Positions 2,476 through 37,988 of a DNA stretch of 64,000 bases are shown in pieces. The DNA comes from a virus. Below the pieces are notes generated by a model. It ran no database searches. It was not told the origin of the DNA and saw only the letters and a program-made list of their open reading frames with translations. Position 1 is the stretch's first letter. Each line of letters opens with the position of its first letter. The translations under genes were made by a program, and so were the position numbers. The stretch spans positions 1-64,000 of the IMG/VR virus record IMGVR_UViG_3300038463_000277; one strand, given 5' to 3'.

Positions 2476-3663
2476 TTAGGCGAACGCGCCCACGTCGTAA
2501 AGACGCGCGTGCCGAGCTTGGTGCCAGATGCGCCAACCCGCCTGCGTCATGATCAAATCCTTCATGACCTTCGGGTTGGTGGTGTCGTAATCGGGATACA
2601 TCTTGGTGTCAAGATTGATCCCGTTTTCCACCAACGGACAGAATTCAACGCTCGGCAAGTCGATGCCGAGAGCCTCACCCTGCACGCCCGCGTCAAAGTT
2701 GTAGTTATTGGCGATGAGCCAATTCCCGTTTGAGGTCACGAACCGCTTGAGGCTGACACCGAAAACCTTGTCCTCGGCCTTGGTCAGCGCCTTGTTGACG
2801 GCCCAATAATCCATCGCCTCTTTCACGAGCGGCGAGGCCATGAGCAGTTTCTCGGGGCTACCGTAACGGAACGCGAAACGGCTCCAGTTGAGGAACACCA
2901 TGAGGGTCGTCGGGGTGGTGGTGCCGCCGCCATCCGTCAGGTAAGACGAGATGATGGAGCGGATTCCCATGGTGGTGTACTTAGTCGCGGTGCCGTTCAA
3001 CTGCTCGGAGAAGCTGGAGAACAATCCGGCATTCTCGATTTCGAGCTTCTGACGGCGCATACCGAGCCACTGCAAGCGCGCCCGCTCGGGCCGGTCGCCG
3101 TAAATCTTCGTGGCGGCGGCGGTGCGGGTGATCTGGATCGGCCACTCAAAAATCTGAGCGCCCGAAGTGCAGGGGGTTTTGATCGGCGTGCGGGGCACGT
3201 CAATCGCACCCGCCTCGGACTGTGCCACGCCCAAAATTTTCAGCGTGGTGCCCGAGCCGATGGTGTTGACGGTCGTGCCTGCGAAAGCACGGGTGACGGT
3301 GAGCACGTTCGCGGCAGAGGTTACAACCTGAATCAGTTCCTCAACCGTTGACGTGGCGGCGTTCGTCATTTGCACGGCGACGACATCGTTGACGCCGAAC
3401 AGCGTCGAATCGACCACGCTGACGGTGTTCGCGGTCGTGGTGTTCGCGACGGCGGCGTTGGCGGTGCCGAGCATGACAAGATCGGCATCCTGAAACCACT
3501 CGATGCGTGGCGAGAAGACGTTCACTTTCCGCTTGCTGTTGTTGGTCAGCACGTACAGCGGGGTGCGGTCGGGCTCAAGAGTGAGCAGGCGAGTCGAGAC
3601 ATCGCGCACGTTCGATGTTTCGGTCGTGAATGAGTTGAAGCTGGAAATGTTGCGAGTGCTCAA
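2476..3663 (-). CDS. Major capsid protein, SU10/DUF5309-like
   Basis: 395 residues. The protein has the organisation of SU10-type (DUF5309) major capsid proteins: a short N-arm, a beta-barrel-like insertion (about 80-150, VVAVQMTN...VLTVTRAFAG), a spine helix region rich in Arg (DRPERARLQWLGMRRQKLEIE) and a C-terminal A-domain with GVQGEALGIDLPSVEF and a final RIWHQARHARLY segment. The start is TTG at 3663-3661, chosen because TAGGAG lies 6 nt before it and the N-terminal sequence begins there. It follows the scaffold-like gene, the usual order portal-scaffold-capsid. Family recognition is from sequence pattern only. Confidence 0.82.
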   Translation of the reverse strand: MSTRNISSFNSFTTETSNVRDVSTRLLTLEPDRTPLYVLTNNSKRKVNVFSPRIEWFQDADLVMLGTANAAVANTTTANTVSVVDSTLFGVNDVVAVQMTNAATSTVEELIQVVTSAANVLTVTRAFAGTTVNTIGSGTTLKILGVAQSEAGAIDVPRTPIKTPCTSGAQIFEWPIQITRTAAATKIYGDRPERARLQWLGMRRQKLEIENAGLFSSFSEQLNGTATKYTTMGIRSIISSYLTDGGGTTTPTTLMVFLNWSRFAFRYGSPEKLLMASPLVKEAMDYWAVNKALTKAEDKVFGVSLKRFVTSNGNWLIANNYNFDAGVQGEALGIDLPSVEFCPLVENGINLDTKMYPDYDTTNPKVMKDLIMTQAGWRIWHQARHARLYDVGAFA

Positions 3664-5062: not shown

Positions 5063-5320
5063 CTAAACTTGTTTGTCCGCACTCAATGCCTGATCGAGCG
5101 TTTCCCATAATTCGGAAAGCTCTTGCGCCTTCGCCGCGTAATCAACCGCGTGCTCGACGTTGCGCGGCACCGTCGCCAATTGCATCGCGCTGTTATTCCG
5201 TAAGTGCTGCGCGCGATAGGCGATAAACTTTTCGAAACCGCTGCGCAGCGGCCCGCTCGACGCGATGAAGTTAACAAGCGCGCCGTGCTCGATCTGTGTC
5301 CAGCCGACCTCATCCGCCAT
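5063..5320 (-). CDS. Small helical protein between portal and scaffold genes
   Basis: 85 residues, helical, with no Cys and no membrane segment. Its start overlaps the 3' end of the portal gene by 11 bases, so it is probably translationally coupled to it. Proteins of this size at this place are common in podovirus-like head modules but I do not recognise the family. Confidence 0.6.
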   Translation of the reverse strand: MADEVGWTQIEHGALVNFIASSGPLRSGFEKFIAYRAQHLRNNSAMQLATVPRNVEHAVDYAAKAQELSELWETLDQALSADKQV

Positions 5321-7919
5321 TGTTCTTTCCCATGCCGCGAACGCCCGGCTGTTTCACGCCCGCCGCGTCGAGACCTACCTGCTGCTGCTTTTCCTGCGAG
5401 GCGAGCTGATTCTTTTGCGCCGCTGCGGTCGCGGCGAGTGCCGTCTTCTGCTGGCTCGCCTGCGCATCCTGCTGGTTCTCTTGCTGCTCGGCCTGCGCGG
5501 CCTGTTGCTGGTTTTGCTGCGCCATGGTGTGTTCGTGCGACTGCTGGCCTTCGACGAGCTTCTGTACGTGCGCAACGGTGCCTTGGTGCAACGCACCCAG
5601 ATGGTCACGGATCGCGCTCACGTGGTCGTGCTCTTGCTGGCCGACGCGCTGTTGATGTTCGTGCGCCTGACGGCTGACTTCCTGCGCCTGCTGGGTGCCT
5701 GCGGCGTGCTCGGCCTTCTCTTGCTCGCCCGGTCCTAGTAGGTTGTCGGCAGCATCGCCCGCCTGCCCGGCTCCGACGGCGGTCTTGATGGCGTCGTTGT
5801 GGACAAGCGTCTGACTCGGTTGCAATCCAATCTCGCCGAGGAGTTGGTTGGTGACATCGGCGGGCATCTTGTCGATGGGGATATTGATATTGACGCTGAT
5901 CTTCGGCGGCGGCGGTGACGGCGGAGCCTGCGGCAGAAAATAGTCGTCCGGGTTGCCGATACCGCGAATCGTAGACATCTGGAAGCGAATCACTTTCCGC
6001 TTGTCGATAATCTCGGGGTTCGCCATGGCGACTTGTGTCAGGGTGAGCGCAGCCTGCTGCCGCATCTCATCGTCTACCGCAAGGTACGAACCTGCTTCCG
6101 GTTCGCAATCGAAATCCTCTTGGATTTCACTCGGGTCGAGGCGGATGGCGACAACTTTGTCGTAGTGATCGGAGAGCGCCCAATCCGGCATTTGCTGCTG
6201 CTTTGCCTCGTCCTTGCCGAGCGCATCGACGCGCTCGCGCGTGCCCTGATTCCAATAGCTCGACTGAATTTCGAAAGCTGCGTCATGCTGTTGCTGTTGA
6301 TTCATCCACAGCTTTTTGAGTCCCAGCTCGCGCAGGTAGCGGTTGCGTCCGTCAAACTTGAATTGCGTGAGAGCGTCGGCAGCCTTCGAAGAGAGTAGCG
6401 CCGTCGTCGCCGTCTTGCCCGCTTGCGGATTCGCATCCGTGCCGTTATCGACGGCGGTCAGCGAGGGCTCGGCAATCGACATCATGCGCATGATTTGCGC
6501 TTCGCGGTCGAATGCGCCGTTCGGCAAGGGCGGTTCCGTCAAGGGCTTGATGCCGTTGAGGTCAGAAATTTTCAGCTCACGGAAGAGCCCCCGCACTACC
6601 ACTTCCGGCTCAACCGTCACGCCAATGCGCGAGAGGATGAAAGGCTTGAGCAGGTTCGTGATGTAATCGAAATTCTGCGCGACGGTGAGGTTGTGCATGG
6701 CATACAAGTGCCGGAGCAGGCGCGGAGTCGAGTCGCCATAGGCCGAAATCAGGTCAGGCAGCGGCGTCATGTCGGTGTAGAGATACTTCCCGTAAAGGTC
6801 GTAGGGATAGGGCCGCCTGCCGAGCGGTTTGTCACGGAACTTTTCAGAAACGTAGGTAATCCAGATTTGCCCGTCGTCGGCATCCTGCGAATGCTGTTCG
6901 AGGATGCGGTACTTGCGCCGGGGCCGCAGATTAAAAGGCAAAGAACTGTCCGGGTCTTTCTCGCGCCCGATGGACGAATTAAACATATCGCGCAGGTCGT
7001 CGCCTTCGTCGCGCTGGTCAGTGTCGCCGCCCATGCTCATAAGTTCCTGCAAGGCATCCGGGTCGAAGGCGGGAACCGGCGCGCCCGTCTTCTCGTCCTC
7101 ATAGTTGAGCTTCGACATCTTCTTGAGCCAGAGGTCGGTCTCAACGTACTGCTCAATGGTGTAAGACGATTGGTCGAGGGTGCGGCAATTCGGTTCGAGA
7201 AAAAGGTCGCCGTTGAAGATGAACTTCACAACCGGCCCCTCGTACTGCTTGACTTGAGTCGGCAGATTGACCTCGCTGCCACTCTTCGACATGAAGTCGG
7301 CGATTTCGTCGTCATCCATCTCGGGACCAAGTTCGTCTACTGCTTCATCGACTTCATCGTCGGCAGCACCCTGAAAACGCATGATCGACGCGCGGTCGCG
7401 ATACACAACGTCCGAGCCCTTCATGATGGCGCGGCGAAATTTCATCATCCGCGTGAGCGTGTCTTGATAGAGCTTTGTGTACCCCCAGCCGAACGCCTCG
7501 GCGGCGAGCACCATGCGGACATCGTGAAAGGCTTCGTTCGAGCGCGCGTATTGCTGCATCGCGAGACCACTGAGCGCGTCCGTCACAGTCGGGTCGCTGC
7601 CGCCCGTGTAGCGCAGCCGGTAGGGTTGCGCCGTCATGCGGGCCGCGTTGCGGCGATAGATAATGTTGAGGTCCGGCATGGCGACGTTCGTCCGGCTCTT
7701 ATCTTCGTTGTGCGTTTCTGCGCCGGAACGGTCCTTTTTATAGATCGGCGGCGTCTTACACTTGATGGCCTGCCATACCTCGGTCATCTCGCCATAGAGG
7801 TTTTTGCGCATCCACTTTTGCGACTCGTTGCGTCGCCCGATGATGTCGGTAACGAGACGCGCCGGGTCTTTTGGCATACCGGGCGAACCGATTTTCGCGA
7901 GTGCTGTCGTGGTGGCCAT
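5310..7919 (-). CDS. Portal protein
   Basis: 869 residues. The N-terminal ~600 residues have the layout of portal proteins of the P22/SU10 kind: an N-terminal helical clip (RRNESQKWMRKNLYGEMTE), a conserved MPDLNIIYRRNAARM segment, a long alpha/beta wing (SYTIEQYVETDLWLKKMSKL) and a stem region with AGKTATTALLSSKAADALTQF. Residues from about 700 form a Gln/Ala/His-rich coiled coil with heptad-like Gln runs, which could be the barrel that enters the capsid. It forms a dodecamer at one vertex through which DNA is packaged. Its ATG overlaps the stop of the terminase nuclease gene by one base. Confidence 0.85.
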   Translation of the reverse strand: MATTTALAKIGSPGMPKDPARLVTDIIGRRNESQKWMRKNLYGEMTEVWQAIKCKTPPIYKKDRSGAETHNEDKSRTNVAMPDLNIIYRRNAARMTAQPYRLRYTGGSDPTVTDALSGLAMQQYARSNEAFHDVRMVLAAEAFGWGYTKLYQDTLTRMMKFRRAIMKGSDVVYRDRASIMRFQGAADDEVDEAVDELGPEMDDDEIADFMSKSGSEVNLPTQVKQYEGPVVKFIFNGDLFLEPNCRTLDQSSYTIEQYVETDLWLKKMSKLNYEDEKTGAPVPAFDPDALQELMSMGGDTDQRDEGDDLRDMFNSSIGREKDPDSSLPFNLRPRRKYRILEQHSQDADDGQIWITYVSEKFRDKPLGRRPYPYDLYGKYLYTDMTPLPDLISAYGDSTPRLLRHLYAMHNLTVAQNFDYITNLLKPFILSRIGVTVEPEVVVRGLFRELKISDLNGIKPLTEPPLPNGAFDREAQIMRMMSIAEPSLTAVDNGTDANPQAGKTATTALLSSKAADALTQFKFDGRNRYLRELGLKKLWMNQQQQHDAAFEIQSSYWNQGTRERVDALGKDEAKQQQMPDWALSDHYDKVVAIRLDPSEIQEDFDCEPEAGSYLAVDDEMRQQAALTLTQVAMANPEIIDKRKVIRFQMSTIRGIGNPDDYFLPQAPPSPPPPKISVNINIPIDKMPADVTNQLLGEIGLQPSQTLVHNDAIKTAVGAGQAGDAADNLLGPGEQEKAEHAAGTQQAQEVSRQAHEHQQRVGQQEHDHVSAIRDHLGALHQGTVAHVQKLVEGQQSHEHTMAQQNQQQAAQAEQQENQQDAQASQQKTALAATAAAQKNQLASQEKQQQVGLDAAGVKQPGVRGMGKNNGG

Positions 7920-8992
7920 TAGTAACTAAAACCTCTCACCATGGGCTCGAAGTCCGACCGATTTGTCTCTTCCTTGATGTGGATGGGGTTGCACATTTCG
8001 ATGTAACGCAGGTTGTCGGTCATGTGATTCCTGACCTTGACGGGCTTGCCGGTCGGGTCTTGCCGCTCGACTTGTGTCGGCGTGAGTTGCTGGCGGCGGT
8101 TGTTCTTGAGCTGGTACACAAGCTCGGGGCAACGGTCGCCGAAGATGTGAATGCGGCTCGACTTCTTATAGACATCGTTGTTACCCAAAACCTCGATGAC
8201 CTTGAGCCCTTCATTGACGACTTCGACGCCGACTTGCCGGTCCTTCTTTGCGTCGTCGAAATAGGTGCGGCTCATGTGCATTGCCTGCATGTGCATCTCG
8301 TAACGTTGCTGGTAATTCTCCTGCTCCGGGTCGTCGTTACTGCCCTTGCCGAAGGCGCGCGCGGCGTAATCAATCACGCGCTCAAAAACTTCTTCCTCGA
8401 CCTTCGTGTGTGTTTGCGGGTCGAAGTTCTCGGGGTTCTGATCTGATTCGAGGTACTTGATGGTCTCGACATATTCCTGAATGCGCGGGCCGCGCTCATC
8501 CTGCCGACATGGCCCTGACTTGCCGTAGAGGATTCCGTTTTCCCAGCGGAAGCAAACACTCGACGGCCACAGCTCGCGGTAATACCAGCGGTCGCCCCAC
8601 GGGTCGGTCGCGCACCACAAAAAAGCGTGCGGGATGCCGGGATGCGGATCGACGGACATGCGCCGCGTCCAATCGTGCGGGATGGGGAACGACTGCTCGA
8701 CCGAAACCTTTTCGTCGAACTGGAAGAGCAGCGAGCCGAGCGTCGCCTCGGCGTCAATCTCGTACTCTTTCAGGTACAGCGTTGGGTCGGTCATGCGCCC
8801 GTAGGCATTGAGAGCCCAAGGCGAGAGAGACTTGTTTATCTCCGGCACAAAGGTCTTCTCGCCTTCGCCCTTCATCGGATCGGCTTCGTAGTGCAGGCGC
8901 AGAATCGTGATGCCGTGCGCGTTCTTCCACGTAGACATTCCAACGTGGGGATACTCGACCGGCATTTCGACGGGCGCGCCATCATTTGCCAT
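7919..8992 (-). CDS. Terminase large subunit, nuclease domain only
   Basis: 357 residues. This is the RNase H-like C-terminal half of a large terminase. It begins near the usual inter-domain linker (TWKNAHGITILRLHYEADP) and carries MSVDPHPG with the first metal-binding Asp (115), CATDPWGDRWYYREL (Asp130) and a late HMTDNLRYIEM with a further acidic site. It cuts concatemeric DNA during packaging. There is no ATPase domain in this gene: that domain is encoded 2.3 kb upstream at 11252-11947, with three genes between. Start and stop abut neighbours without gaps, so the split is not a simple recent frameshift. Confidence 0.85.
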   Translation of the reverse strand: MANDGAPVEMPVEYPHVGMSTWKNAHGITILRLHYEADPMKGEGEKTFVPEINKSLSPWALNAYGRMTDPTLYLKEYEIDAEATLGSLLFQFDEKVSVEQSFPIPHDWTRRMSVDPHPGIPHAFLWCATDPWGDRWYYRELWPSSVCFRWENGILYGKSGPCRQDERGPRIQEYVETIKYLESDQNPENFDPQTHTKVEEEVFERVIDYAARAFGKGSNDDPEQENYQQRYEMHMQAMHMSRTYFDDAKKDRQVGVEVVNEGLKVIEVLGNNDVYKKSSRIHIFGDRCPELVYQLKNNRRQQLTPTQVERQDPTGKPVKVRNHMTDNLRYIEMCNPIHIKEETNRSDFEPMVRGFSY

Positions 8993-9298
8993 TTAGTACC
9001 TTGACTGCGCCCCCGCGCCCATCATCGGCGTCGAGGATGCCCCTTGCGGAGCTTGCGGGCCGAGAATGTTGTGCTGCCGTGACAGTTCCGATTCCAAGTC
9101 GCTCAGTGTGCGATGGAGTTCGTGAGCAAGATTCACAAGGCAAATTTCGCTCTGCGGTTCGAGAGTTTTTTCCGTCGGCGATGAGCCAACGAGTTTCGCG
9201 GTGATTGCTTGCGTCGAACTGAGAAGAGCCGACGCGCGTTTGTTTGCTTCGCACATAATCCCTAGCAAGGGATCGCTAACAGCCTTCGTACCTTCCAT
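8993..9298 (-). CDS. Small helical protein inserted between terminase halves
   Basis: 101 residues. Helical with a heptad-like centre (LVNLAHELHRTLSDLESELSRQ) and a Pro/Gly/Ala tail. Its TAA is followed directly by the ATG of the terminase nuclease gene, so the two are likely co-translated. It could be a packaging accessory or a virion protein; no family recognised. Confidence 0.55.
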   Translation of the reverse strand: MEGTKAVSDPLLGIMCEANKRASALLSSTQAITAKLVGSSPTEKTLEPQSEICLVNLAHELHRTLSDLESELSRQHNILGPQAPQGASSTPMMGAGAQSRY

Positions 9299-9313
9299 TG
9301 ACTGCCTCCGTTT

Positions 9314-9931
9314 CTAAGCACCAAAAAATGCGCCGCGTCCGCTCGCGCGACCTTTAGAGAAGATTGCGCCGCGCTCTTTCGCTGACAGCTTTGAAGACTG
9401 GCCCATGCCGCCCGAGACAATTTTCGGCGTGGGAAACGCGCCATCGAGCACGGGATTCGGCGGGCCGCCTGCCGGGGGCGGCATCGGCGAAGTGCTCTTG
9501 CCCATGTTGCCGTCGCTGCCGATGGGATTGCGCGGAGCCTTTGCGACCGCTCCGCCCTTTGTGGGTCCGCCTAAGCCGAGAGGCAAAGGTCCATTGCCGC
9601 CGCCGAAGCTGCCGGGCGTTGCTTTGCGCGGAGCCGCTGCGAGGTTGCCGACTACCGTCTTGCGCGGTGCGCCTGCAAGAGAGCCCACCATGGTTTTGAC
9701 TGGTTTCACGCTCCGCATCGGAACGATGGTTTTGATTGGGTTCATCTGTGCTCCCTTCAAGGCTTGCGCCGCCATCTGCATTGGGTTTCCCAGCGGGTTC
9801 GGGGCGGGGCCTGTGCCCTGTGCCCGAGCCGCTAGATGTGGTCTGAGTTGCGCCGGAGTCTTCGGCGACTTGAGGGCCGCGAGTACCCCGGCGCGCATAT
9901 GGCCGGACTGTGATGGATCGCCGAACGCCAT
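9314..9931 (-). CDS. Low-complexity Pro/Gly/Ala/Lys protein with internal repeats
   Basis: 205 residues, basic and low in complexity, with an imperfect repeat around residues 65-110 (units of about 14 residues containing AGAPRKTVVG and AAAPRKATPG). No enzyme motif, signal peptide or membrane segment. Similar Pro/Gly/Met-rich proteins occur at 51052-51432 and 58061-58543, so it may be a minor virion or DNA-associated protein. It lies between the two terminase genes. Confidence 0.55.
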   Translation of the reverse strand: MAFGDPSQSGHMRAGVLAALKSPKTPAQLRPHLAARAQGTGPAPNPLGNPMQMAAQALKGAQMNPIKTIVPMRSVKPVKTMVGSLAGAPRKTVVGNLAAAPRKATPGSFGGGNGPLPLGLGGPTKGGAVAKAPRNPIGSDGNMGKSTSPMPPPAGGPPNPVLDGAFPTPKIVSGGMGQSSKLSAKERGAIFSKGRASGRGAFFGA

Positions 9932-9943
9932 GACTAACCTCCG

Positions 9944-11239
9944 TTACAAATTCCGAACATCGACAACAAACACGTCGCCGCGCGGCACCGCTTTGCCCTT
10001 GACCACGGTCATACCGAGCGAGCCCATGGCGTCCGAAGTGAACGCAACGAAGCTGCCCGTCTGCGAAGGAACGCCGATAGCGTTCTGCACGATGAAGCTC
10101 GGCGAGTTGCCGCTGTTAAAGGTGTGGCAGGCGCGCGAGACGACGCCCGTCTGCGCGTTGTATCCGCGTACTTCGTTCATCCACGCGCTCGTGAAGGGCG
10201 TCACTTGCGACTGACTCGTGTCCCAAAACGTTGCGTTGTCGAGCGGGTCGAACTTGCCAAAGCCGGTGTGCTGATCGCCGCAATACTTCTGCCCGTTCTG
10301 CCCCGGCAAGCCGGTGCGCGGAACAATCATGCGAGTCGCGGCGATGTTCGCGTAAGGCACTTCGAGGTACTGCCCGCCGCCCGGCCCGCCGAAATAGGCG
10401 TGCAGGTAACCCTTGGCCGCATGGCCGCCGCCAAGCATGTCGGTGAGGTTGAGCGTGGCCGTGTCCCACACAAGCGGATAGCCTTCCGCGCCGTGCGCAG
10501 GCGAGGGGCTGACAATCGCATACTGCGGGTTCGCGGTCTGCATCGCTTCGTGAATGACAAAAGGAAACGTCGTGTGCGGGGAGACCATGTTGCACGCGCC
10601 AGTGATGCCCCAATCGCCGGTAATCTGGCCCTTGGTGATGTCGAGCATCCGGTAGCCGCCGCCCGCGTGTCCGGTTTGGAACACACAGATGTTCGAGCCG
10701 CTGTTCTGCTGGCCTTCGGAGAAGCCCGCGACGAAAGTCGTATCGTCCGCCGAGACCATGAAACTCGAAGTCCACTTGACCTTGAAGCCCGCAGGCAGAC
10801 TGCCCGCAAAATCGCATACTGGTGTCGCCGTGCCGGTGTAGGACATGACGGAGCCGACCGTTTTGAACGTCAGCTTTGCGATCTTCGTGCCGATCAAGCG
10901 ATAGAGCACTGCCGGGTCGGTGCGCGAGAAACATAGGTTGCCGTCAAACTTGCCGGTGAGCTGCTTGCCTTGCAAGGTTGCCGGGTTGAACTGGATGACA
11001 ACGGAGCTGCCGCCCGTGTTCCTGACTAGGAGCAAGGTGTCGTTCGCGTTCCACAAACCGCATTCCGGCTGATCGGCGGTTTGCATGGAAGAGCCGAGGC
11101 AAGTCATGCCGTCGGTGAGGCGAACAATCTTCGTGCCGAAATCAGGGTCGGTCTGGATGGTGTTCTTGCCGGTGAGCGCGCCCCAATTCGGGAGCGGCGA
11201 GGGAAGCTGCGTAATTTTTAGATCGGTGCGGAGAGTCAT
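9944..11239 (-). CDS. Beta-propeller-like protein (TolB/WD-like blades), probable virion protein
   Basis: 431 residues with repeated beta-strand blades (SGLWNANDTLLLV, KWTSSFMVSADDTTFVAGF, FVAFTSDAMGSLG) such as occur in TolB-like or seven-bladed propellers. No signal peptide. The pattern IVRLTDG near the start is typical of TolB-like blades. It may be a surface or receptor-contacting virion protein. It separates the ATPase gene (11252-11947) from the nuclease gene of the large terminase, an unusual place for such a gene. Confidence 0.6.
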   Translation of the reverse strand: MTLRTDLKITQLPSPLPNWGALTGKNTIQTDPDFGTKIVRLTDGMTCLGSSMQTADQPECGLWNANDTLLLVRNTGGSSVVIQFNPATLQGKQLTGKFDGNLCFSRTDPAVLYRLIGTKIAKLTFKTVGSVMSYTGTATPVCDFAGSLPAGFKVKWTSSFMVSADDTTFVAGFSEGQQNSGSNICVFQTGHAGGGYRMLDITKGQITGDWGITGACNMVSPHTTFPFVIHEAMQTANPQYAIVSPSPAHGAEGYPLVWDTATLNLTDMLGGGHAAKGYLHAYFGGPGGGQYLEVPYANIAATRMIVPRTGLPGQNGQKYCGDQHTGFGKFDPLDNATFWDTSQSQVTPFTSAWMNEVRGYNAQTGVVSRACHTFNSGNSPSFIVQNAIGVPSQTGSFVAFTSDAMGSLGMTVVKGKAVPRGDVFVVDVRNL

Positions 11240-11251
11240 TGGGGGAGTCCT

Positions 11252-11947
11252 TTAGCGCTTCGTTTCAGAGTGAAACCAGCCCATGCCGTCGGAACTGACG
11301 GCGATGATCTGCTTACACACAGGTCGGACTGCGTTAAACGACTGCTCAGCCTCGGGCAAGAATGCGGCTTCGTCCATGGCGAATCCGTAGGGATGGAACA
11401 AACGAACCTGATTTTCTCCCTGCGGAACAGCCAAGATGTGCGAGCCGTTTTTTCGCTTCATCTCAACTGAGTTATCGACCACAACCGGGTTGCGTTCCTT
11501 CATCCAGTCGGGTTGACGGTTGAACAAGATGCGGCAGTAGTTAATAAGCTGCGTCGCCTTGTCCTCTTTCTCCGTCTGCATAATCCAAAAAATGTGTGGC
11601 AGCCATTGCGTCATCCATGCGATGTATCCGCAGACGAGCCACGAGGTCATCATTTCGCGCGACTTTGGAATGAAAAGCGTGTCCTGTGTGAGCATCGCTT
11701 TCATGGCGGGCACAAAGTAACTCCACGCCGGGAAGGGTGAGACCGGCTCCGTGCCCTTACTCAGCCAGTGCTGATCCTCGGTCATCGTGTGCTGGGTCAG
11801 CCACAGAAGCGGCCCCGCTTCGAACGATGCAGTGCGGCGGCTGCACTTCTCCCAAACCTCGCGCTCCGCCATCTCTTTCTTGATGAGAATGTTCATCACC
11901 ATGCCCTCGCGTTTGATCGGCGAGAGGTTCGGCGTGACTTGGCTCAC
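11252..11947 (-). CDS. Terminase large subunit, ATPase domain only
   Basis: 231 residues. This is the packaging-motor ATPase half of a large terminase: an adenine-binding region with PAWSYFVP, a deviant Walker A PKSREMMTS (94-102, as in terminases that lack the classical GK), Walker B YGFAMDEAAF with catalytic Glu (192-193) and coupling motif AVSS (216-219). The protein stops shortly after motif III (GMGWFHSETKR), exactly where the linker to the nuclease usually begins; the nuclease is at 7919-8992. The motor is expected to assemble on the portal as a ring. Confidence 0.85.
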   Translation of the reverse strand: MSQVTPNLSPIKREGMVMNILIKKEMAEREVWEKCSRRTASFEAGPLLWLTQHTMTEDQHWLSKGTEPVSPFPAWSYFVPAMKAMLTQDTLFIPKSREMMTSWLVCGYIAWMTQWLPHIFWIMQTEKEDKATQLINYCRILFNRQPDWMKERNPVVVDNSVEMKRKNGSHILAVPQGENQVRLFHPYGFAMDEAAFLPEAEQSFNAVRPVCKQIIAVSSDGMGWFHSETKR

Positions 11948-12609
11948 TTAACCCCCCTGAAAAAATTTACCGCGATGTTCGCGATGGTAAGAAGAGTTAG
12001 AATCGCGCCGATAGATAAGATGGCCCAGTGCCAGCCGTCTCGGTTGCCTACCTTGCGATCCTCGACCGAGGCCGCCGTCTTCGTGAGCGCGTCAATTTTC
12101 TCTGTCAGAACCTTGTTGACTTGCGACAACTTCTCATCCGTCGCGCGGTGCAACGCCTCGGACTCGCTGCGCGGCATTAACATGCGTTGCTGATCGCCGA
12201 GGGTGCTCCTGAATTCGTTCACACTCTCAAATCTTTTTTCTGCGGCAGTCTCCGCTTTCTGAATCGCGCGGTCGGCGGCTGCCATGGCACTCGTAACCGC
12301 TTCTTTCTGCGCCTGAAACGCCGCGTCAATCGCGGCTTTTTGCGCTATGGTTCTCTCGGTAAGCGCCTTTTCCTGCGCCTCCGAGGCAAGATCAACCGCC
12401 CGCTCATGCGCCTCGAAGGCGATGTGACTCTGTTTTTCCGCCGCCTGCCAACGCTCAATCGTGACGTGCTCTAGCGCGTCGATGCGCGTCGTTACTACGC
12501 TGGCAAGCCCCTCTATCTTCGCGAGCACGTAGGCGCGCAGCGTTTCCGTGTTCCAGATAGGAACAACCGGAGCGCCGACGCCGTTTTCTTCTGCCTCTCG
12601 CCTAATCAC
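11944..12609 (-). CDS. Long coiled-coil protein with C-terminal membrane anchor
   Basis: 221 residues. Residues about 30-185 form an Ala/Glu/Lys-rich coiled coil; residues about 195-215 (WAILSIGAILTLLTIANIAV) are one hydrophobic segment followed by a short basic tail. This resembles tail-anchored coiled-coil proteins found near terminase genes in many phages, sometimes annotated as holin- or spanin-related. It overlaps the terminase ATPase gene by ATGA. Lysis or membrane function is inference. Confidence 0.6.
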   Translation of the reverse strand: MIRREAEENGVGAPVVPIWNTETLRAYVLAKIEGLASVVTTRIDALEHVTIERWQAAEKQSHIAFEAHERAVDLASEAQEKALTERTIAQKAAIDAAFQAQKEAVTSAMAAADRAIQKAETAAEKRFESVNEFRSTLGDQQRMLMPRSESEALHRATDEKLSQVNKVLTEKIDALTKTAASVEDRKVGNRDGWHWAILSIGAILTLLTIANIAVNFFRGVK

Positions 12610-12838
12610 CGCGCTGCACGCTCGTTTCTGGAGCTGGAGCGGGAACGATTGCGGAAACCATCGTGTGAATCGCCCTCAATTGTTCCGTGTGTTGCGCCGA
12701 GACCTCGGTAGCTTTCGCGCTCCGTGTGGCTGCCATGCTCGCGGTTACAAGGTTCACCACGGCGAGCAGAGCGACCGCTAAGGGCGTCAGGAACGCGAGC
12801 CATTCGGCAGTCGATGGGATGGGCGGCGATATGATCAC
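12602..12838 (-). CDS. Small single-span membrane protein, holin-like
   Basis: 78 residues with a hydrophobic segment at about 12-32 (WLAFLTPLAVALLAVVNLV) and a polar C-terminal helix. Overlaps neighbours on both sides by 4-8 bases. Size and place next to another membrane-anchored protein suggest a holin or membrane partner, but no lysin gene is adjacent (the endolysin is at 26478). Confidence 0.5.
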   Translation of the reverse strand: MIISPPIPSTAEWLAFLTPLAVALLAVVNLVTASMAATRSAKATEVSAQHTEQLRAIHTMVSAIVPAPAPETSVQRGD

Positions 12839-13236
12839 TGCACGCTTTCCTCGGGAAAGTGCCCGTGCTCAAGGTGGTAGAGCAGGTCGGAATCGCTGCG
12901 CGCGCGCAAGTCCGCCGTGACATCGTTCACGTCGATCTGCTGTTTCGGTTTGCCTTCGCAGCGATCTACGATTTGATCCATGGCCATGAGGCGCGTCTTA
13001 TCGACCTCGGGGTCGGGATGAATCACGCAATGGTAGTAAATGTCGGCGATGCGCTCGGCGCACGTCGTCTTCGTCTCCGGGTCCATGGATGCGAGCTTCT
13101 CGCGCAAGGCGATGGTGACGAGCGTAATCATGCGCGACGCTTTGCCGGTTGGATTCGTGACGACGCCCCTCTTAAAAGGGGTTCCGCCCGGTATCGCTTG
13201 CCCTTGTACGATTCTCGGTTTCTTCGGCGTTACCAT
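12835..13236 (-). CDS. Probable small terminase subunit (DUF5681-like N-terminus)
   Basis: 133 residues from the ATG at 13236, which overlaps the TAA of the upstream gene (ATGGTAA). The N-terminal PFKRGVVTNPTGKAS segment is like DUF5681-type proteins (K/R-G...NP.G), the middle is helical, and the end has DRCEGKPKQQIDVND, a motif common in phage small terminase-type proteins that recognise packaging DNA. It lies at the head of the packaging genes. Assignment is moderate because no pairwise comparison was run. Confidence 0.55.
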   Translation of the reverse strand: MVTPKKPRIVQGQAIPGGTPFKRGVVTNPTGKASRMITLVTIALREKLASMDPETKTTCAERIADIYYHCVIHPDPEVDKTRLMAMDQIVDRCEGKPKQQIDVNDVTADLRARSDSDLLYHLEHGHFPEESVQ

Positions 13237-13454
13237 AGACTTTTGAGCCACTCGACCCACGCATTTTTGTGCGGGGTCTTCTCGACGAGTTCGTTCGGAT
13301 CGAGTTCGAGGTCAACCGCCAGCGGTTCGGCGGGGATTTCCGGCGCGCCGACTACTTCAAGCTCCAGATTCACGCGATGAAGCTCGGGCGCGACCGCGAC
13401 GACCTTCGTCACCTTGACCTTTTTGACCGTGGCCTTTTTCTTTTTTTGTGCCAT
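13230..13454 (-). CDS. Small Lys-rich then acidic protein
   Basis: 74 residues from ATG 13454 (a longer upstream frame would run through the terminator and the next gene). Residues 4-22 are Lys/Val-rich; the rest is acidic. It lies just downstream of a terminator hairpin and overlaps the small-terminase-like gene. Function unknown. Confidence 0.5.
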   Translation of the reverse strand: MAQKKKKATVKKVKVTKVVAVAPELHRVNLELEVVGAPEIPAEPLAVDLELDPNELVEKTPHKNAWVEWLKSLW

Positions 13455-14315: not shown

Positions 14316-15089
14316 CTATGCCCTCCAAGGTCGTCCGGTATGGACAACCCAAAGATCGGTATCCGGTGAGGCGATGACTTGGAACGGCATCCAGAAATAG
14401 CCCTTCTGCCCCCATGCAGTGCCCCAACTGTTCTGAATCAGCGCCAGCTCTTTCGGCGCGTCATAGCCGAGACAAAGGGTCTCGTGACCGCCGTCCAGTC
14501 GTTCGCCCGGCTTCGGGATCGGCATGATGCCGGTGTCCGCAACCTGCTGCGACATGAATGACTCATAGACCGTGAAGCCAACCGTGACCGGCCACGGCGA
14601 GGGGTCAGACAAGCAAGTCATGAAGTCGTCGAGGTTCGCGATTCGGTGGTAGGCACCCGTCTTGTACTTGAGGGCGTTCGCCGCTTGTTCCGGCGTCGGG
14701 ATCGTGAAGACGCCCGGCTTGTAGGGATAGAGCGCCGCCTCGCAGCATCCGAGCGCGGTGAGCTGCGCTGCACCCGAGCGCGGCATCGCGCCGTCGTCGT
14801 TCGGGTAAGAGCCTTCGGCGCGCAGCTCCTCGACATAGAGGCACTGCGGGCTCAAGATCGGCGATGACTTTTCGTAGCGCCGCGCAATCCACTCGCGCGC
14901 CGAAGAAAAAGCGTGCCCGGTGCAACTGCCTTCGTCGCCCTGATCCTTGATCGGGCCGCCCCATGGGCGCGTATCGACGTACTGCACAATGGGACGCGCG
15001 GGCGATGCGGCGCGATAGAGCCGGTCGCGCACGTCATGAACGTCGCGCTTCGCTCCGAACTTGCGACCTTGCACTAAGGGGAAATTCAT
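14316..15089 (-). CDS. Papain-like (C1 family) cysteine peptidase
   Basis: 257 residues. The C1 peptidase signature is complete: oxyanion-hole Gln50 and nucleophile Cys56 in KDQGDEGSCTGHA, catalytic His202 in GGHETLCLGYD, and Asn220 in IQNSWGTAWGQKGYFWMPF. The short N-terminus (about 35 residues) leaves no room for an inhibitory propeptide and shows no signal peptide, so it may act in the virion or host cytoplasm. It overlaps the lipoprotein gene upstream by ATGA-type coupling. Possible roles are processing of virion proteins, peptide-bond lysis or attack on host proteins; none is proven. Confidence 0.8.
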   Translation of the reverse strand: MNFPLVQGRKFGAKRDVHDVRDRLYRAASPARPIVQYVDTRPWGGPIKDQGDEGSCTGHAFSSAREWIARRYEKSSPILSPQCLYVEELRAEGSYPNDDGAMPRSGAAQLTALGCCEAALYPYKPGVFTIPTPEQAANALKYKTGAYHRIANLDDFMTCLSDPSPWPVTVGFTVYESFMSQQVADTGIMPIPKPGERLDGGHETLCLGYDAPKELALIQNSWGTAWGQKGYFWMPFQVIASPDTDLWVVHTGRPWRA

Positions 15090-24914: not shown

Positions 24915-25826
24915 CTACCTACCGTCAGTCTGCTCGTTTACAATTTCACCGAAAGCAAATTCTTGCTGCCCGAATGGTTCACAGCTTTCCGAGCATCCTG
25001 AATCCTCGTCGCCGTCGTCTGCGATCCGCGAGTTGACTAGTTCTGCTATTCCGATAATGTCGCCGGTAGTGCGTTGCTCGCGGAAGAACCGTCTTGGCCT
25101 GCCATCAGCATAGGTTCCGTACTTTTCTTCCATGCGTGCGGGGAACTCGAATACTTCTGGAGTCTCCTGCGCGATTGCCACGAGTTTGTTGATATTTTTC
25201 TTCCAGCACCAAGTACAGTTGCCCTGATAAGACTTCAGGTTTAGTCGGTAAGCATGATCCTCCCAGAAGCGATTCACGCCTCCCTTATCCGTTGGGAACA
25301 TCGTAACTAGTGGGTAGATGATCTTTGCCGCCTCGGCATCGGCTCTTATACGGGAAGGCTCATCTACCCTGATGCCGATAGCCGTAAAATAGCTATCCCA
25401 GCCGATTGATGCCATGTATGAACGGATCGGATTCAGCTTCAACTCCCGAGTGCAATGCGGATACTTCTGATTCGGGATGCCGTATTTGTCGATCACGGCC
25501 TCGAAAGGCTCACCCTTCATCGCAACGCCATCAAGAGATACCAGCCGATGCGTGCAGCCGATCCTGCCCTCGTGTGTCACGGCCTCAAGTACGTGGATCG
25601 GGAAGCCCCACTCTTCATCCATTTGCCGCAAAAACTCGAACGTCTCGCGCCGCTCCTGCCCTGTATTCGCCATCACGAAGCACATTTCGTAAATGTCGTT
25701 GTAGTTTGCGAGCAACTCCTGAGCCATAAAGGCTGAAGTTTCTCCACCCGACACGCTTACGCAAAGACGCTCCTTGCTCAAGTTTGTAGCTGCAAGCCTC
25801 GGCTCTTGGTGCTTGTGTTCGCTCAT
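24915..25826 (-). CDS. PP-loop ATPase of the PAPS-reductase-like family
   Basis: 303 residues. The PP-loop SVSGGETSA (24-32) and the family's later motifs are present: ANTGQERRETFEF, HCTRELKLNPIRSYM (Cys125), GIRVDEPSRI and CTWCWKK (204-209). It belongs to the adenine-nucleotide alpha-hydrolase group that includes PAPS reductase and DndC-type proteins, in which ATP is used to adenylate a substrate or sulfur is transferred. In phages such genes are often of unknown role; nearby DNA/RNA modifying genes suggest nucleic-acid modification, but this is inference. Confidence 0.75.
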   Translation of the reverse strand: MSEHKHQEPRLAATNLSKERLCVSVSGGETSAFMAQELLANYNDIYEMCFVMANTGQERRETFEFLRQMDEEWGFPIHVLEAVTHEGRIGCTHRLVSLDGVAMKGEPFEAVIDKYGIPNQKYPHCTRELKLNPIRSYMASIGWDSYFTAIGIRVDEPSRIRADAEAAKIIYPLVTMFPTDKGGVNRFWEDHAYRLNLKSYQGNCTWCWKKNINKLVAIAQETPEVFEFPARMEEKYGTYADGRPRRFFREQRTTGDIIGIAELVNSRIADDGDEDSGCSESCEPFGQQEFAFGEIVNEQTDGR

Positions 25827-27854: not shown

Positions 27855-28471
27855 GCGCTCCTCCGGTCCTGATTGAGAACACCAATGCGGTAGTAGCTGC
27901 CAAGCCTTGACGCGAGCCGCTCATCGACCAAGCGCGCCACGTCCTCCAGCCCGAAATTCGTCGTCACGACCGTCGGCAGAAGCGCGTTCCCTCGGCGGTC
28001 GATCAGGTCGAGCAGACTGCGCCGCTCGTGATCGCTCAAGCTCCCACTCGCAATGTCGTCGAGTACGAGCCACATCGCCCCGGCATACTTCCGCAGGATG
28101 TCCATCTCGCTCGGCAAAGCGAGCGGATCGCGGTAGCTCTCCCGCAGCTCGGCGTAGAAGTCCGCCGCCCGTACAAAAACGGGACGCTTCCGCGCCTCGT
28201 ACAAACTCCGCATCATGGCGCAAGCGAGATGCGTCTTCCCCGAGCCCGTCGGCCCCCAGAGCATTAACCCCTCGGTCGGTTTCAGGATGAACTCGGAGAC
28301 ATCCCGGCGAATGTCCGGGTCGAAGTCCGCGAGCTTTGCCCCGTGGAACTTTGGCGGCAAGACCGTGCGCAGGGTTTTGTCGAGAATGCACGGGCACCGC
28401 GTCGTCGAACAGTCCGGCCCGACAATCCAACCCGTATCCCCGCAGTGCGGGCACTCGCTATTTTTTTTCAT
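27851..28471 (-). CDS. DnaC/IstB-like AAA+ helicase loader
   Basis: 206 residues from ATG 28471. N-terminal zinc-type cluster CPHC...CPC (7-28), then an AAA+ core: Walker A GPTGSGKT (73-80), Walker B LVLDDI (135-140), sensor 1 TTN (170-172) and Arg finger ASR (187-189). Loads a replicative helicase onto single-stranded DNA; no helicase gene is in this window, so it probably recruits the host's. Overlaps the replication gene upstream. Confidence 0.85.
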   Translation of the reverse strand: MKKNSECPHCGDTGWIVGPDCSTTRCPCILDKTLRTVLPPKFHGAKLADFDPDIRRDVSEFILKPTEGLMLWGPTGSGKTHLACAMMRSLYEARKRPVFVRAADFYAELRESYRDPLALPSEMDILRKYAGAMWLVLDDIASGSLSDHERRSLLDLIDRRGNALLPTVVTTNFGLEDVARLVDERLASRLGSYYRIGVLNQDRRSA

Positions 28472-29321
28472 CTCGGCTACTCGTGTACTTGCTAAGGTCG
28501 GCCCTCGTGTCATGAACGGCTCCTGTCGTTTCCCGCTTCACCACATCCCGGCTCCACGTCTTCGGGTCACGCCGGTACTGCGACTCGTGGAAGAACTTCG
28601 CAGCGCCGGGGATGAAATTGAATTCCGCCTTGTCCCACTTTCGGACTACCTCGGCCATGCTCTTCGTCCCCGCAAAAACCAGATCGCGACCGTCCCGCGC
28701 CACGGCCTCGACGATGGCGACCTCGACGTCATGGGGTAGGTGTTGGGGATCGAGCACCTTGGGGTACAGCTTCGCTATCTCCATCACCACGGCGTCGAGG
28801 TTGCCGTTGCTTTTCGTGAGATTTTGACTTTCGAATTTCAAACCCGCCCGGTTTTGACTCGCCGCTTTTTCCGGCTTCTCAACCGAAAGGGGGGTAGGGG
28901 GGTTCTTGGAATCAGGAATCAAAGAATCAGGAATCAAGGAATCAGCCGGGCTAGTACCATGCTCGTCTGGTGCGAGTCCGGTGCGAGTCCGGTGCGAGTC
29001 TGGTGCTGGTATGGTGCTCTGCGCCTCTTTCACGTGTGGATTCTGATGTTTACGAAAGTTCACTATCTGCACGGCTTCGCGACCATCCGCCACGCCATAG
29101 CGACGAATGAAGCCAGCTTTCTCAAGCTCTACGCACAGTAGCGCCACGCTCACGCGACGGTATGGCAACACCTCCGCTTTGATCTGCTCCGGGCGATACC
29201 AAAGTCGCCCTTCCCGGTCGGCCATACACCACATGCCGATGAACAGGATTTGAGCCGCAAGCGGTAGGTTTGCCAGCTCCGCGTTCTTAAAAAATCCCGG
29301 CTTAATGTTCCTAGCTCTCAC
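28458..29321 (-). CDS. Replication protein with N-terminal winged helix (DnaD/lambda O-like role)
   Basis: 287 residues. Residues 1-75 (NLPLAAQILFIGMWCMADREG, then VALLCVELEKAGFIRRYGV) resemble winged-helix phage replisome organisers. The Pro/Ser-rich middle carries the repeated coding sequence described separately; the C-terminal part has EVAIVEAVARDGRDLVFAGTKS. Followed by the helicase loader, a usual pair. A related gene lies at 29997-30821. Confidence 0.7.
   Translation of the reverse strand: MRARNIKPGFFKNAELANLPLAAQILFIGMWCMADREGRLWYRPEQIKAEVLPYRRVSVALLCVELEKAGFIRRYGVADGREAVQIVNFRKHQNPHVKEAQSTIPAPDSHRTRTGLAPDEHGTSPADSLIPDSLIPDSKNPPTPLSVEKPEKAASQNRAGLKFESQNLTKSNGNLDAVVMEIAKLYPKVLDPQHLPHDVEVAIVEAVARDGRDLVFAGTKSMAEVVRKWDKAEFNFIPGAAKFFHESQYRRDPKTWSRDVVKRETTGAVHDTRADLSKYTSSRDEKK
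28909..28945. repeat. 15-bp tandem repeat (GAATCAGGAATCAAA-type) inside replication gene
   Basis: Two copies of a 15-bp unit (28909-28923 and 28924-28938, one difference) plus a 7-bp third partial (28939-28945). They encode SLIPDSLIPDS. Located within the replication gene, like iterons in lambdoid O genes. Confidence 0.75.
28970..29016. repeat. 11-bp tandem repeat (GTGCGAGTCCG-type) inside replication gene
   Basis: Three near-perfect copies (28970-28980, 28981-28991, 28992-29002) and two decayed ones to about 29016. Together with the AT-richer repeat just before, they suggest a replication origin within the gene. Confidence 0.75.
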
Positions 29322-29996: not shown

Positions 29997-30821
29997 TCAT
30001 GCTGCACCCTGACCTCGGAAATACTCGACCCAATTCGCAGGGGCCTTACCCTGTGCCTTGAGTAGAGCCGCAGGGCCGAATACCTTGTTCCCGGCTGCCT
30101 CTAGAGATAATCCCTCATGCCTCGCCTTAACTCTGATTGCCTCAATAACTGTATCGGTTAGTGTTAGGCTGACAGGTATACCCAATGCGTCTAGCATCCT
30201 CGCTGCAAAAACTTCGATAGCTCTTCGCCTTGTTTCGCGGTCCTTTGCCCCTAATCCTTCGAGGTCACTCTCTAGTACAAAGTCGTGAGTATTACCCTCT
30301 GCGGGCTCTTCTAGTGCATCGCTTTCATTTTGCAGTGCTTGCGCATCATCGGAGTGCAACGGCTTCGCTACAGGTCCGTTATGCGCCTGCACTGCGGCTG
30401 TGCGTTCCACGTGAAACGCATCCGCCTTACACTTCGCGCAATAGCACGCGGCGTGATGCTCGTGAGGAGATTTCGGGATAGTGGAATGGCTAGGACGGTT
30501 TAGAACCAAGTCGGCAATATTGACTATGCGCAGGTACTCGCGGCGTTCGACTTTGTAACGTTCGATCAGGTCCGCATCGGCGAGCTGTGCAAGCCATTCG
30601 ACAACGTTCGCGATGGTAGCGTCGCCTTCGGCGGGGAAGATATAGCTTTGGAGAGCACGCGGCGAATACTCCATCCGCCCCATGTCGTCACAGAAACACG
30701 TGAGGCCAACGTACAGCCACCGGGCGGAGTGCGAGCACTCGGCGAGGGCGTCATCTGAAAAGTAAGTGGGGCGAATCTTGCGAACTCTTGGCAAGGGTAA
30801 AACCTTTCGGTTTACCCTCAT
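29997..30821 (-). CDS. Second replication-type winged-helix protein
   Basis: 274 residues. Residues 15-110 (CSHSARWLYVGLTCFCDDMG, then VVEWLAQLADADLIERYKV) share the pattern of the winged-helix region of the protein at 28458-29321. Two Cys pairs (CYCAKC near 135) follow, and a C-terminal DLxDAL-type helical region. It is the first gene of the leftward early operon. ATG 30821 has an overlapping hairpin (GGTAAA...TTTACC), so initiation may be regulated. A paralogue by likely duplication. Confidence 0.6.
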   Translation of the reverse strand: MRVNRKVLPLPRVRKIRPTYFSDDALAECSHSARWLYVGLTCFCDDMGRMEYSPRALQSYIFPAEGDATIANVVEWLAQLADADLIERYKVERREYLRIVNIADLVLNRPSHSTIPKSPHEHHAACYCAKCKADAFHVERTAAVQAHNGPVAKPLHSDDAQALQNESDALEEPAEGNTHDFVLESDLEGLGAKDRETRRRAIEVFAARMLDALGIPVSLTLTDTVIEAIRVKARHEGLSLEAAGNKVFGPAALLKAQGKAPANWVEYFRGQGAA

Positions 30822-36120: not shown

Positions 36121-37212
36121 ATGGCGGCTTCATCGCATTTTCCCATTGTTGAGAGTCTACCCCCCTCGCACGAAATCCGACACACCTTCATCGGCGGCAG
36201 CGAAGCCTATGAATTGCTCAACGAAAAGCAGTACGGCAAGGGCTGTGTGCGCGCGCTCGGCTATCGCAAGAGTCAAGTGCCCGAAGACTTCGAAGAGCGC
36301 GCAGCGCGCGGCGTGACGCTCGCGGGCATCTTCCGGCGCGGGCATTTGCTTGAAGACATCATCGCGAAACTGTACATGGAAGACACGGGGCGCTCGCTCA
36401 TCCGGCGCGAGCGCATCATCCACGCGCGTGACTATCCCGGCGCGGCGGTTCACACAGATCGCATTATCTTGAGTGACGCGCTCGCGAACCGTCCGACCGG
36501 CGACGCGGAATTAAAGAGCCATGGGGAAGGCCCGTTCCTCGGCATCCTGCGCAATGGGTTACCCCCCGGCCACAATCTACAGCTTCAATGGAGCCTGTTC
36601 TGTACCGGGCACACGTGGGGCGCGTTTATCATCCTCGGCGTTTTCGGCGAGCTGCCGCTAAAGCATTTCGATGTAGCCCGCGACGAAGAGGTAATCGACA
36701 TCTTCAAGCGCGAGACGGATAAATTCTGGAGCACACTCGCGCGCGGCGAGCTACCCCCGCCACCGTTCCCCGCAGACGATGTGCGTTGCAAGGTTTGCCC
36801 ATGGCGCTTGACGTGTCGCGGAGAGAGCGAACTCGATCACGAAGAGCTGCAACGGCTGCGCGCGGAGCGCGATAACAAGACGCCATTGCGCACCGTACAA
36901 GACGAAGAGCTTGGCGACCTACTGCTTAACCGCGCGCTCATCCAATCGGAAATCGCGGCGCTCGACTCGGACAAAGAAGACGACCCCGGCGCGCTGCAAC
37001 TCGTGACCGAGCGCATTAAGGAACTCATGGGCGACACCGAGGCGGCGCTAGTCAATGGGCAATGGCGCGTGTACTCGCAGCCGAATTTCTGGAGCGGCGT
37101 CGATCAGCAAAAGCTCAGAGTCGAAGCCCCCGAAGTTTACAAAAAGTTTTTTGTGCGACGCGCGACCGGCAAGAAGCGGTTGCAGGTTCACCCGGTAAAG
37201 CGGGCGCAATGA
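36121..37212 (+). CDS. Cas4/AddB-like PD-(D/E)XK exonuclease
   Basis: 363 residues. PD-(D/E)XK features are Glu79 region (GHLLEDIIAKLY), HTDRI (Asp113) and AELKS (Glu130, Lys132). Cys42 in GKGCVRALGY and C-terminal Cys223, Cys226, Cys232 (CKVCPWRLTC) match the four ligands of a Cas4/AddB-type iron-sulfur cluster. It likely resects double-stranded DNA ends for the RecT annealase encoded 0.8 kb downstream. Start supported by AGGGGA 7 nt upstream. Confidence 0.8.
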   Translation: MAASSHFPIVESLPPSHEIRHTFIGGSEAYELLNEKQYGKGCVRALGYRKSQVPEDFEERAARGVTLAGIFRRGHLLEDIIAKLYMEDTGRSLIRRERIIHARDYPGAAVHTDRIILSDALANRPTGDAELKSHGEGPFLGILRNGLPPGHNLQLQWSLFCTGHTWGAFIILGVFGELPLKHFDVARDEEVIDIFKRETDKFWSTLARGELPPPPFPADDVRCKVCPWRLTCRGESELDHEELQRLRAERDNKTPLRTVQDEELGDLLLNRALIQSEIAALDSDKEDDPGALQLVTERIKELMGDTEAALVNGQWRVYSQPNFWSGVDQQKLRVEAPEVYKKFFVRRATGKKRLQVHPVKRAQ

Positions 37213-37481: not shown

Positions 37482-37983
37482 CCACATGTGCGAATGCGGA
37501 TGCGGGACGGAACTGCGAGCCAACTATCGCGGTCACTTCTATGCGTTCGCCCGTGGGCATCGCATCACGAAGCGCAAACCAATCGAGGAGCTACAGCGAA
37601 CGCACATCTGCAACGGCTATGTCATGGAACGCGCTCCGGGGCACCCGCACGCGAATCGAGACGGGTTTGTTGGACAGCATATTCTCGTCGCGGAAAAGGC
37701 GCTCGGCTACTACTTGCCGGACGGTGCCGAGGTCCATCACTGGAACTTAAACCGCAGCAACAACGCGAATAGCAATCTCTTGGTTTGCCCGAGCAAAGCC
37801 TACCACTTGCTGATTCACCGCAGGATGGAAGCGAGAGCAGCCTGCGGCAATCCGAATTTCAGAAAGTGCTACATCTGCAAAAAGTGGGACGACGAGAGCG
37901 CCTTGTACATTCGCGCGCGCACGGCCTACCACACCGAATGTCACCGCATTTATCAGGCACAACGAAAGGCTATCGCCGCGTGA
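37471..37983 (+). CDS. HNH endonuclease-type protein
   Basis: 170 residues. N-terminal zinc-type CECGC, then HNH motif: EVHHWNLNRSNNANSNL (86-103) with His89/His90 and Asn pairs, followed by HLLIHRR; a second Cys set (CYIC near 133-136) ends the protein. It resembles phage HNH proteins that nick DNA or act as homing endonucleases. It sits between exonuclease and RecT genes with no intron signs, so it may be a free-standing homing endonuclease or a recombination enzyme. Confidence 0.75.
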   Translation: MPTDHMCECGCGTELRANYRGHFYAFARGHRITKRKPIEELQRTHICNGYVMERAPGHPHANRDGFVGQHILVAEKALGYYLPDGAEVHHWNLNRSNNANSNLLVCPSKAYHLLIHRRMEARAACGNPNFRKCYICKKWDDESALYIRARTAYHTECHRIYQAQRKAIAA

Positions 37984-37988
37984 AAACC

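What the first reader, a model, noticed from the sequence alone, without database searches (positions are those of the whole stretch)
7919..11947. Large terminase split into separate ATPase and nuclease genes by three inserted genes
The ATPase half (11252-11947) ends just after coupling motif III, and the nuclease half (7919-8992) begins at the usual linker. Three leftward genes (a propeller-like protein, a repeat-rich protein and a small helical protein) lie between. Both halves have intact motifs, starts and couplings, so this looks like stable gene fission rather than decay. Fused terminases are the norm.
Basis: partly seen in the sequence, partly recalled or inferred. Interest (0 to 1): 0.75.

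Follow-up and report, generated by a model that had tools for sequence, protein, structure and literature searches.

The report
Phage DNA-packaging motor split in two
In a lineage of uncultured phages the DNA-packaging enzyme, normally one protein, is made as two separate proteins whose genes are held apart by other genes, and it seems to have stayed that way throughout the lineage, so the join between its two parts must be dispensable.

Summary
The window encodes a large-terminase (TerL) ATPase core (11252-11947, minus) and a TerL nuclease (7919-8992, minus) as separate genes, with three genes between. It is not a local accident: 35 of 35 distinct viral loci that carry both halves have them split, 1.2-5.6 kb apart, none fused. 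Both halves end or begin at conserved places, are under purifying selection and co-vary (Mantel r 0.84), and together cover one TerL without overlap. The cut lies just after coupling motif III, so the 'nuclease' half also carries the lid/linker part of the ATPase. No intron was found, with a working positive control. The genes between vary; one low-complexity family (here 9314-9931) clusters in all 35 loci, and 26 of 35 intervals encode proteins ending in a shared [AP]F[FY]G tag. A split TerL with genes between is already annotated in Arthrobacter phage KellEzio, with no detectable kinship to this one, so the kind is known; this is an apparently independent, deep, lineage-wide variant. Most likely the two polypeptides reassemble non-covalently into one motor (inferred, untested).

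The parts
11252..11947 (-). TerL ATPase core gene (231 aa): Walker-A-like KSREMMTSW, Walker B MDEAAFLPE, coupling motif III SSDGMGWF, stop 6 residues later
7919..8992 (-). TerL lid/linker plus RNase H-fold nuclease gene (357 aa)
9944..11239 (-). 431-aa intervening gene, matched only in the window's own population; fold unknown
9314..9931 (-). 205-aa low-complexity intervening gene, ends ...GAFFGA; relatives in all 35 intervals
8993..9298 (-). 101-aa intervening gene; its stop abuts the nuclease ATG
11944..12609 (-). 221-aa gene upstream; overlaps the ATPase start by 4 bases
12835..13260 (-). 141-aa conserved gene in the small-terminase position (assignment by position and look only)
5310..7919 (-). 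869-aa probable portal gene, directly after the nuclease half
   Evidence: phrog_1216 portal, E 0.11; conserved neighbour
2476..3663 (-). SU10-type major capsid protein; marks this as the head/packaging module
   Evidence: PF17236, 6.4e-21

Best explanation
An ancestor of the lineage suffered a fission of the TerL gene in the loop just after coupling motif III. Since then two separately translated proteins, an ATPase core (~230 aa) and a lid/linker-plus-nuclease protein (~310-360 aa), have done the work of one TerL. Most likely they reassemble non-covalently, so that the lid carried by the nuclease protein completes the ATPase site and couples hydrolysis to DNA movement and cutting. Shown: two genes, separate conserved termini, conserved motifs, co-inheritance, purifying selection, no intron detected. 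Inferred: physical reassembly, and that the complex is the packaging motor. The space between the halves has become a place where accessory genes are exchanged.
For: 35 of 35 distinct loci with both halves are split, 0 fused; gap 1,230-5,594 nt, median 2,563. The ATPase half ends 5-11 residues after the motif III Gly-x-Phe in all 35 (34 by the script; L115, where the pattern missed a variant letter, ends the same way in the printout), with all three stop codons in use (TGA 15, TAA 11, TAG 9), and the halves lie in any relative frame (13/11/11). Nuclease start at a homologous place, ATG/GTG/TTG in 31 of 35. dN/dS 0.03-0.16 for both halves in pairs where dS was not saturated; distance matrices of the halves correlate, r 0.84, 0 of 5,000 permutations as high. 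Against a profile of six fused TerLs the halves take columns 18-208 and 221-312. TerL nucleases fill the top 25 rows for the nuclease model; T4 gp17 tops the ATPase model. No other TerL match in the record. A plaque-forming isolate with the same layout exists (KellEzio), and other split phage enzymes are reported to work (split nrdA and gene 43, passages of PMC2988022).
Against: No RNA or protein data. Models are of low confidence (mean pLDDT 54 and 67) and no Foldseek hit reached 1e-3; the ATPase Z of 7.7 is in the range where chance fold matches occur. The nuclease half's hhalign probability to fused TerLs is modest (62.8%). Walker A is atypical (no GK[ST]). In 4 of 35 loci (L058, L104, L105, L117) there is no ATG/GTG/TTG at the expected nuclease start, only near-cognates such as CTG or ACG, and a Shine-Dalgarno-like string was seen before a start in only 8 of 35. 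All members are uncultured contigs. 13 further loci held one half only; they neither support nor contradict.
Confidence: 0.85

Rival explanations
1. The halves are exons: a long self-splicing intron, possibly with genes inside, is removed from the mRNA, as in Jug phages and Bastillevirinae.
For: TerL genes broken by group I introns, with splicing seen in RNA, are reported (passages of PMC12363816; PMC11878797).
Against: No Rfam match in the whole window nor in 7 relatives (99,539 bases) at gathering score, and only one sub-threshold sRNA-family match in the interval at lax threshold; the same search finds three group I introns in 50 kb of phage Twort. Conserved stop and start places, an in-frame stop directly before the nuclease ATG in the window, and several separately coded genes in the gap speak against it.
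Confidence: 0.05
2. Functional separation: the ATPase protein is the motor on its own and the nuclease is a separate enzyme called in only for the first and last cut; they do not form one stable TerL.
For: Separate genes with their own starts would allow different amounts of the two proteins.
Against: The lid/linker segment stays with the nuclease protein, so the ATPase core alone lacks a part that fused TerLs have; the halves co-vary.
Confidence: 0.15
3. Trans-splicing by a split intein rejoins the halves.
For: Inteins in TerL are reported (Mic1, passages of PMC7156551).
Against: The ATPase half stops 5-11 residues after motif III and the nuclease half starts about 21-34 residues before its first conserved motif: no room for intein halves.
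Confidence: 0.01
4. Assembly artefact or decaying gene.
For: Metagenome contigs only.
Against: 35 protein-distinct loci, dN/dS well below 1, motifs kept.
Confidence: 0.01

Closest known systems
Arthrobacter cluster AT phages (KellEzio, Kitkat, BeatusComedenti, DanielleIgnace)
   Same: Annotated TerL ATPase-domain gene and nuclease-domain gene, in KellEzio with five genes between; PMC5513430 notes two TerL-related genes (passage). The ATPase half there also seems to end soon after its motif III stretch (my reading).
   Different: No sequence relation found to either half here (hhalign probability 1.0% and 0.2%); different intervening genes, none of KellEzio's with the C-terminal tag; 6 records, 5 of them at least 99% alike.
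Split phage enzymes associated with homing endonucleases: Aeh1 nrdA/mobE, T4 gene 60/mobA, gene 43A/43B
   Same: An essential gene divided into two polypeptides that must reassemble; nrdA and 43A/43B reported to retain function (passages of PMC2988022).
   Different: Not TerL; no homing endonuclease found in the window's interval; HNH or endonuclease VII genes only in a few relatives (L013; L121 and its family, 3 loci).
Intron-split TerL of Jug phages and Bastillevirinae; intein TerL of Mic1 and of IBB_35
   Same: TerL reading frame broken in the DNA.
   Different: There the product is, or is thought to be, rejoined by RNA or protein splicing (passages of PMC12363816, PMC11878797, PMC7156551, PMC3322345); no such element found here.

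Membership tests
Large terminase (TerL) | ASCE ATPase with Walker A, Walker B, coupling motif III | tested here: met
   Invariant K, R, S-W of the KSREMxxSW-type motif, DE of Walker B, S...G.F of motif III; Walker A lacks GK[ST]; T4 gp17 is the best match
Large terminase (TerL) | RNase H-fold nuclease with conserved acidic residues | tested here: met
   Top 25 VIA-align rows are TerL nucleases, Z 7.1-11.9; the D of DPHP, of RVIDY and of TDNLRY are invariant in the 16 rows of A5; which acids are catalytic is inferred; model pLDDT 54
Large terminase (TerL) | Both domains in one polypeptide | tested here: not met
   0 of 35 fused
Split TerL as in Kelleziovirus | ATPase and nuclease as two genes with others between | tested here: met
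Split TerL as in Kelleziovirus | Common descent of the split proteins | tested here: inconclusive
   No detectable similarity; single-sequence templates, so distant kinship is not excluded
Group I/II intron-split TerL | Intron ribozyme between the pieces | tested here: not met
   control
Intein-split TerL | Intein halves at the break | tested here: not met
   termini too short
Homing-endonuclease 'genes in pieces' | Endonuclease gene at the break | tested here: not met
   None found in the window's interval; present in a few relatives only
Split TerL that works by reassembly | Halves form an active complex | not testable with these tools
   needs protein

The most novel reading that the evidence does not exclude
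The split is kept because the two TerL halves frame a cargo locus. Its mostly small, basic or proline-rich proteins carry a common C-terminal peptide, [AP]F[FY]G(E), that marks them for uptake by the packaging machinery or the capsid (as targeting peptides do for encapsulins, recalled), and recombination in the conserved halves swaps the cargo between phages.
Probability: 0.15. Interest if true: 0.85.

Novelty: new variant of a known kind. Interest (0 to 1): 0.6.

Why it matters
TerL is a widely used marker gene for tailed phages and is treated as one protein. A lineage in which it has long been two shows that the joint between ATPase core and lid can be cut without loss of packaging, gives a natural two-component motor whose parts can be tested separately, and warns that marker-based surveys may miss or misread such phages. 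KellEzio, an isolate with an apparently independent split, makes the reassembly question testable now.

Tried and rejected
Intron: Rfam on the window, on 7 relatives and, at lax threshold, on the interval, with Twort as positive control: nothing. Split intein: no room. Stop-codon recoding: all three stops end the ATPase halves and the halves lie in all three relative frames. Second TerL in the record: only the ATPase half matched a fused-TerL profile over 68,959 bases; that this profile missed the nuclease half shows its limits. Is the shared tag a DNA-level repeat? No: synonymous codons vary at every tag position. Is the tag widespread? One codon pattern for KAFYGE-stop met one contig of the viral collection, and that is in this lineage; the pattern samples only one form of the tag. 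Fused close relatives: five alignment-based scans of viral contigs found none; only distant fused TerLs of other phages. Host: the first genome-contig scan found nothing, the second one contig in an Acidobacteriota MAG, a lead, not proof. Promoter and terminator scan: 0 promoter-like sites and no more terminator-like sites than in shuffles. A Tunturi virus of Acidobacteriota (PP885684) is not in the collection. Phrase hits for Arthrobacter cluster AN phages and phage MD8 did not concern a split terminase. Papers: ten searches, of which looked for a split or fissioned TerL; none listed this lineage, but the library holds only openly licensed papers. VIA-align rows below the terminases were not followed.

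Full report
What is there. On the minus strand of the window lie, in order, a 221-aa gene (11944-12609), the TerL ATPase half (11252-11947), a 431-aa gene (9944-11239), a 205-aa gene (9314-9931), a 101-aa gene (8993-9298), the TerL nuclease half (7919-8992) and a probable portal gene (5310-7919), and further on an SU10-type major capsid protein at 2476-3663. Several neighbours abut or overlap: the ATPase GTG overlaps the stop of the gene before it, and the nuclease ATG follows the stop of the 101-aa gene directly.

Identity of the halves. By sequence the ATPase half matches TerL family phrog_5989 (7.8e-6; 11 of 14 relatives match it) and the nuclease half only weakly phrog_10250 (0.0029; 10 of 16 relatives). 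AlphaFold models are weak (pLDDT 67 and 54), yet the nuclease model's best 25 VIA-align rows are all terminases (D6E Z 11.9, SPP1 11.0, P22 10.9, HK97 10.4, T4 gp17 9.1) over model residues about 83-342, and the ATPase model's best row is T4 gp17 residues 108-304 (Z 7.7). Against a profile of six fused TerLs the ATPase half aligns to columns 18-208 and the nuclease half to 221-312. So the pieces are adjacent, do not overlap, and make one TerL. T4 gp17's nuclease match begins at residue 361, so the cut near gp17 residue 304 falls inside the ATPase domain, before what is known (recalled) as its second subdomain or lid. The 'nuclease' gene brings that segment with it.

It is a lineage, not an accident. 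Searches of IMG/VR with single sequences and then with alignments gave, after removing duplicates at protein level, 35 loci that hold both halves; in all 35 the halves are separate genes on one strand, none is fused. One of the 35 (L003) is the window's own population. Thirteen further loci held one half only and were left out of the count; L022 and L025 have 3.7 and 4.1 kb before the nuclease without an ATPase half, so their gap is larger or the contig is cut. Mean pairwise identity is 53% (lowest 36%) for the ATPase and 58% (lowest 42%) for the nuclease. A more distant nuclease (L076, 36%) has its upstream side cut off.

It is stable. The distance matrices of the halves correlate at r 0.84 (0 of 5,000 permutations reach it); dN/dS is 0.03-0.16 for both halves in the pairs where dS could be computed, many pairs being saturated. 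The ATPase half stops 5-11 residues after motif III in every locus; the script reported 35 for L115 because its pattern missed a variant letter, but the printed end is the same. Stops are TGA 15, TAA 11, TAG 9, relative frames 13/11/11. The nuclease start lies at a homologous place, with ATG/GTG/TTG in 31 of 35; L058, L104, L105 and L117 have only near-cognate codons there, which I count against a fully standard start. Shine-Dalgarno-like strings were seen in 8 of 35.

No splicing found. Rfam finds no intron in the window or in seven relatives (99,539 bases), and at lax threshold only one sub-threshold sRNA match in the interval. The same search finds three group I introns in 50 kb of Twort. 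Intein halves have no room.

What lies between. The interval (1,230-5,594 nt, median 2,563) differs from phage to phage. By single-linkage BLAST clustering one family, that of the 205-aa gene, is in 35 of 35 loci; its members are low-complexity, so chaining is possible, and the listing shows two shapes. A family whose representative is protein-isoaspartate-methyltransferase-like is in 25 of 35, a histidine-phosphatase-like one in 11, and rarer ones include an epimerase, a glycosyltransferase-like protein, HNH and endonuclease VII (one representative of each was scanned). Among the 24 loci the window's 431-aa and 101-aa genes were matched only in its own population.

A shared tail. Unrelated proteins of the interval end in [AP]F[FY]G plus 0-3 residues. 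In the 35 loci, 50 of 618 plus-strand ORFs (45 aa or more) inside the interval have it, against 0 of 1,972 plus-strand ORFs outside and 0 of 2,931 on the minus strand; 26 of 35 loci have at least one. The expression was set after seeing the data. Codons vary, so it is a protein feature. It is not confined to the interval: a DNA pattern over 14 whole records met 14 places in 8 records, 0 for the reversed control; by my reckoning of coordinates 11 lie between the TerL halves and 3 elsewhere, one being window 58061-58543, and a protein at the matching place in L144 (7586-7930) also carries it. Window 51052-51432 ends similarly.

How it most likely works. Two polypeptides reassemble at the natural joint between ATPase core and lid/nuclease, as reported for split nrdA and gene 43 (passages of PMC2988022). 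I rate the two-gene, two-protein reading at 0.85; physical reassembly within it is inference.

What is known. In Arthrobacter phage KellEzio TerL is annotated as two genes with five between, which PMC5513430 mentions in one sentence as two TerL-related genes; six records carry it. Neither half there shows kinship to those here, so the fissions look independent and, as far as I can read from the sequences, near the same joint. Intron- or intein-broken TerLs are reported elsewhere. None of the eight literature searches aimed at this listed the present lineage, in a library of openly licensed papers only.

Verdict. Real, stable and lineage-wide; a new variant of a little-noticed kind. The shared tail on the proteins between the halves is the least explained part.

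Noticed in passing
9314-9931, 51052-51432, 58061-58543; many related loci: Unrelated small or proline-rich proteins share the C-terminal tag [AP]F[FY]G(E/G/Q), concentrated between the TerL halves (50 of 618 interval ORFs, 0 elsewhere in the 35 held loci).
   Followed up: partly
14316-15089: Papain-family cysteine protease (PF00112, 2.4e-11; phrog_16701, 3.2e-20) upstream of the packaging genes.
   Followed up: no
51883-56064: 1393-aa protein whose best family is a 1362-position 'portal protein' PHROG (1.2e-26) with ParB-like matches, although the portal seems to be 5310-7919.
   Followed up: no
45269-46702; 36121-37212; 37785-39134; 24915-25826: Integrase (suggests a temperate habit), RecE-like and RecT-like recombination pair, and a PAPS-reductase-like gene.
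   Followed up: no
28458-29321 and 29997-30821: Two nearby genes that both match replication-initiation families.
   Followed up: no
L108:78-1034: A nuclease half (71% to L100) on a 31-kb contig binned in an Acidobacteriota MAG: a host lead for the lineage.
   Followed up: no
L058, L104, L105, L117: Nuclease halves without ATG/GTG/TTG at the homologous start; near-cognates such as CTG or ACG stand there.
   Followed up: partly
9458-9526: Sub-threshold match to the M23 sRNA family (27.6 bits, cut-off 41.2), probably chance.
   Followed up: no
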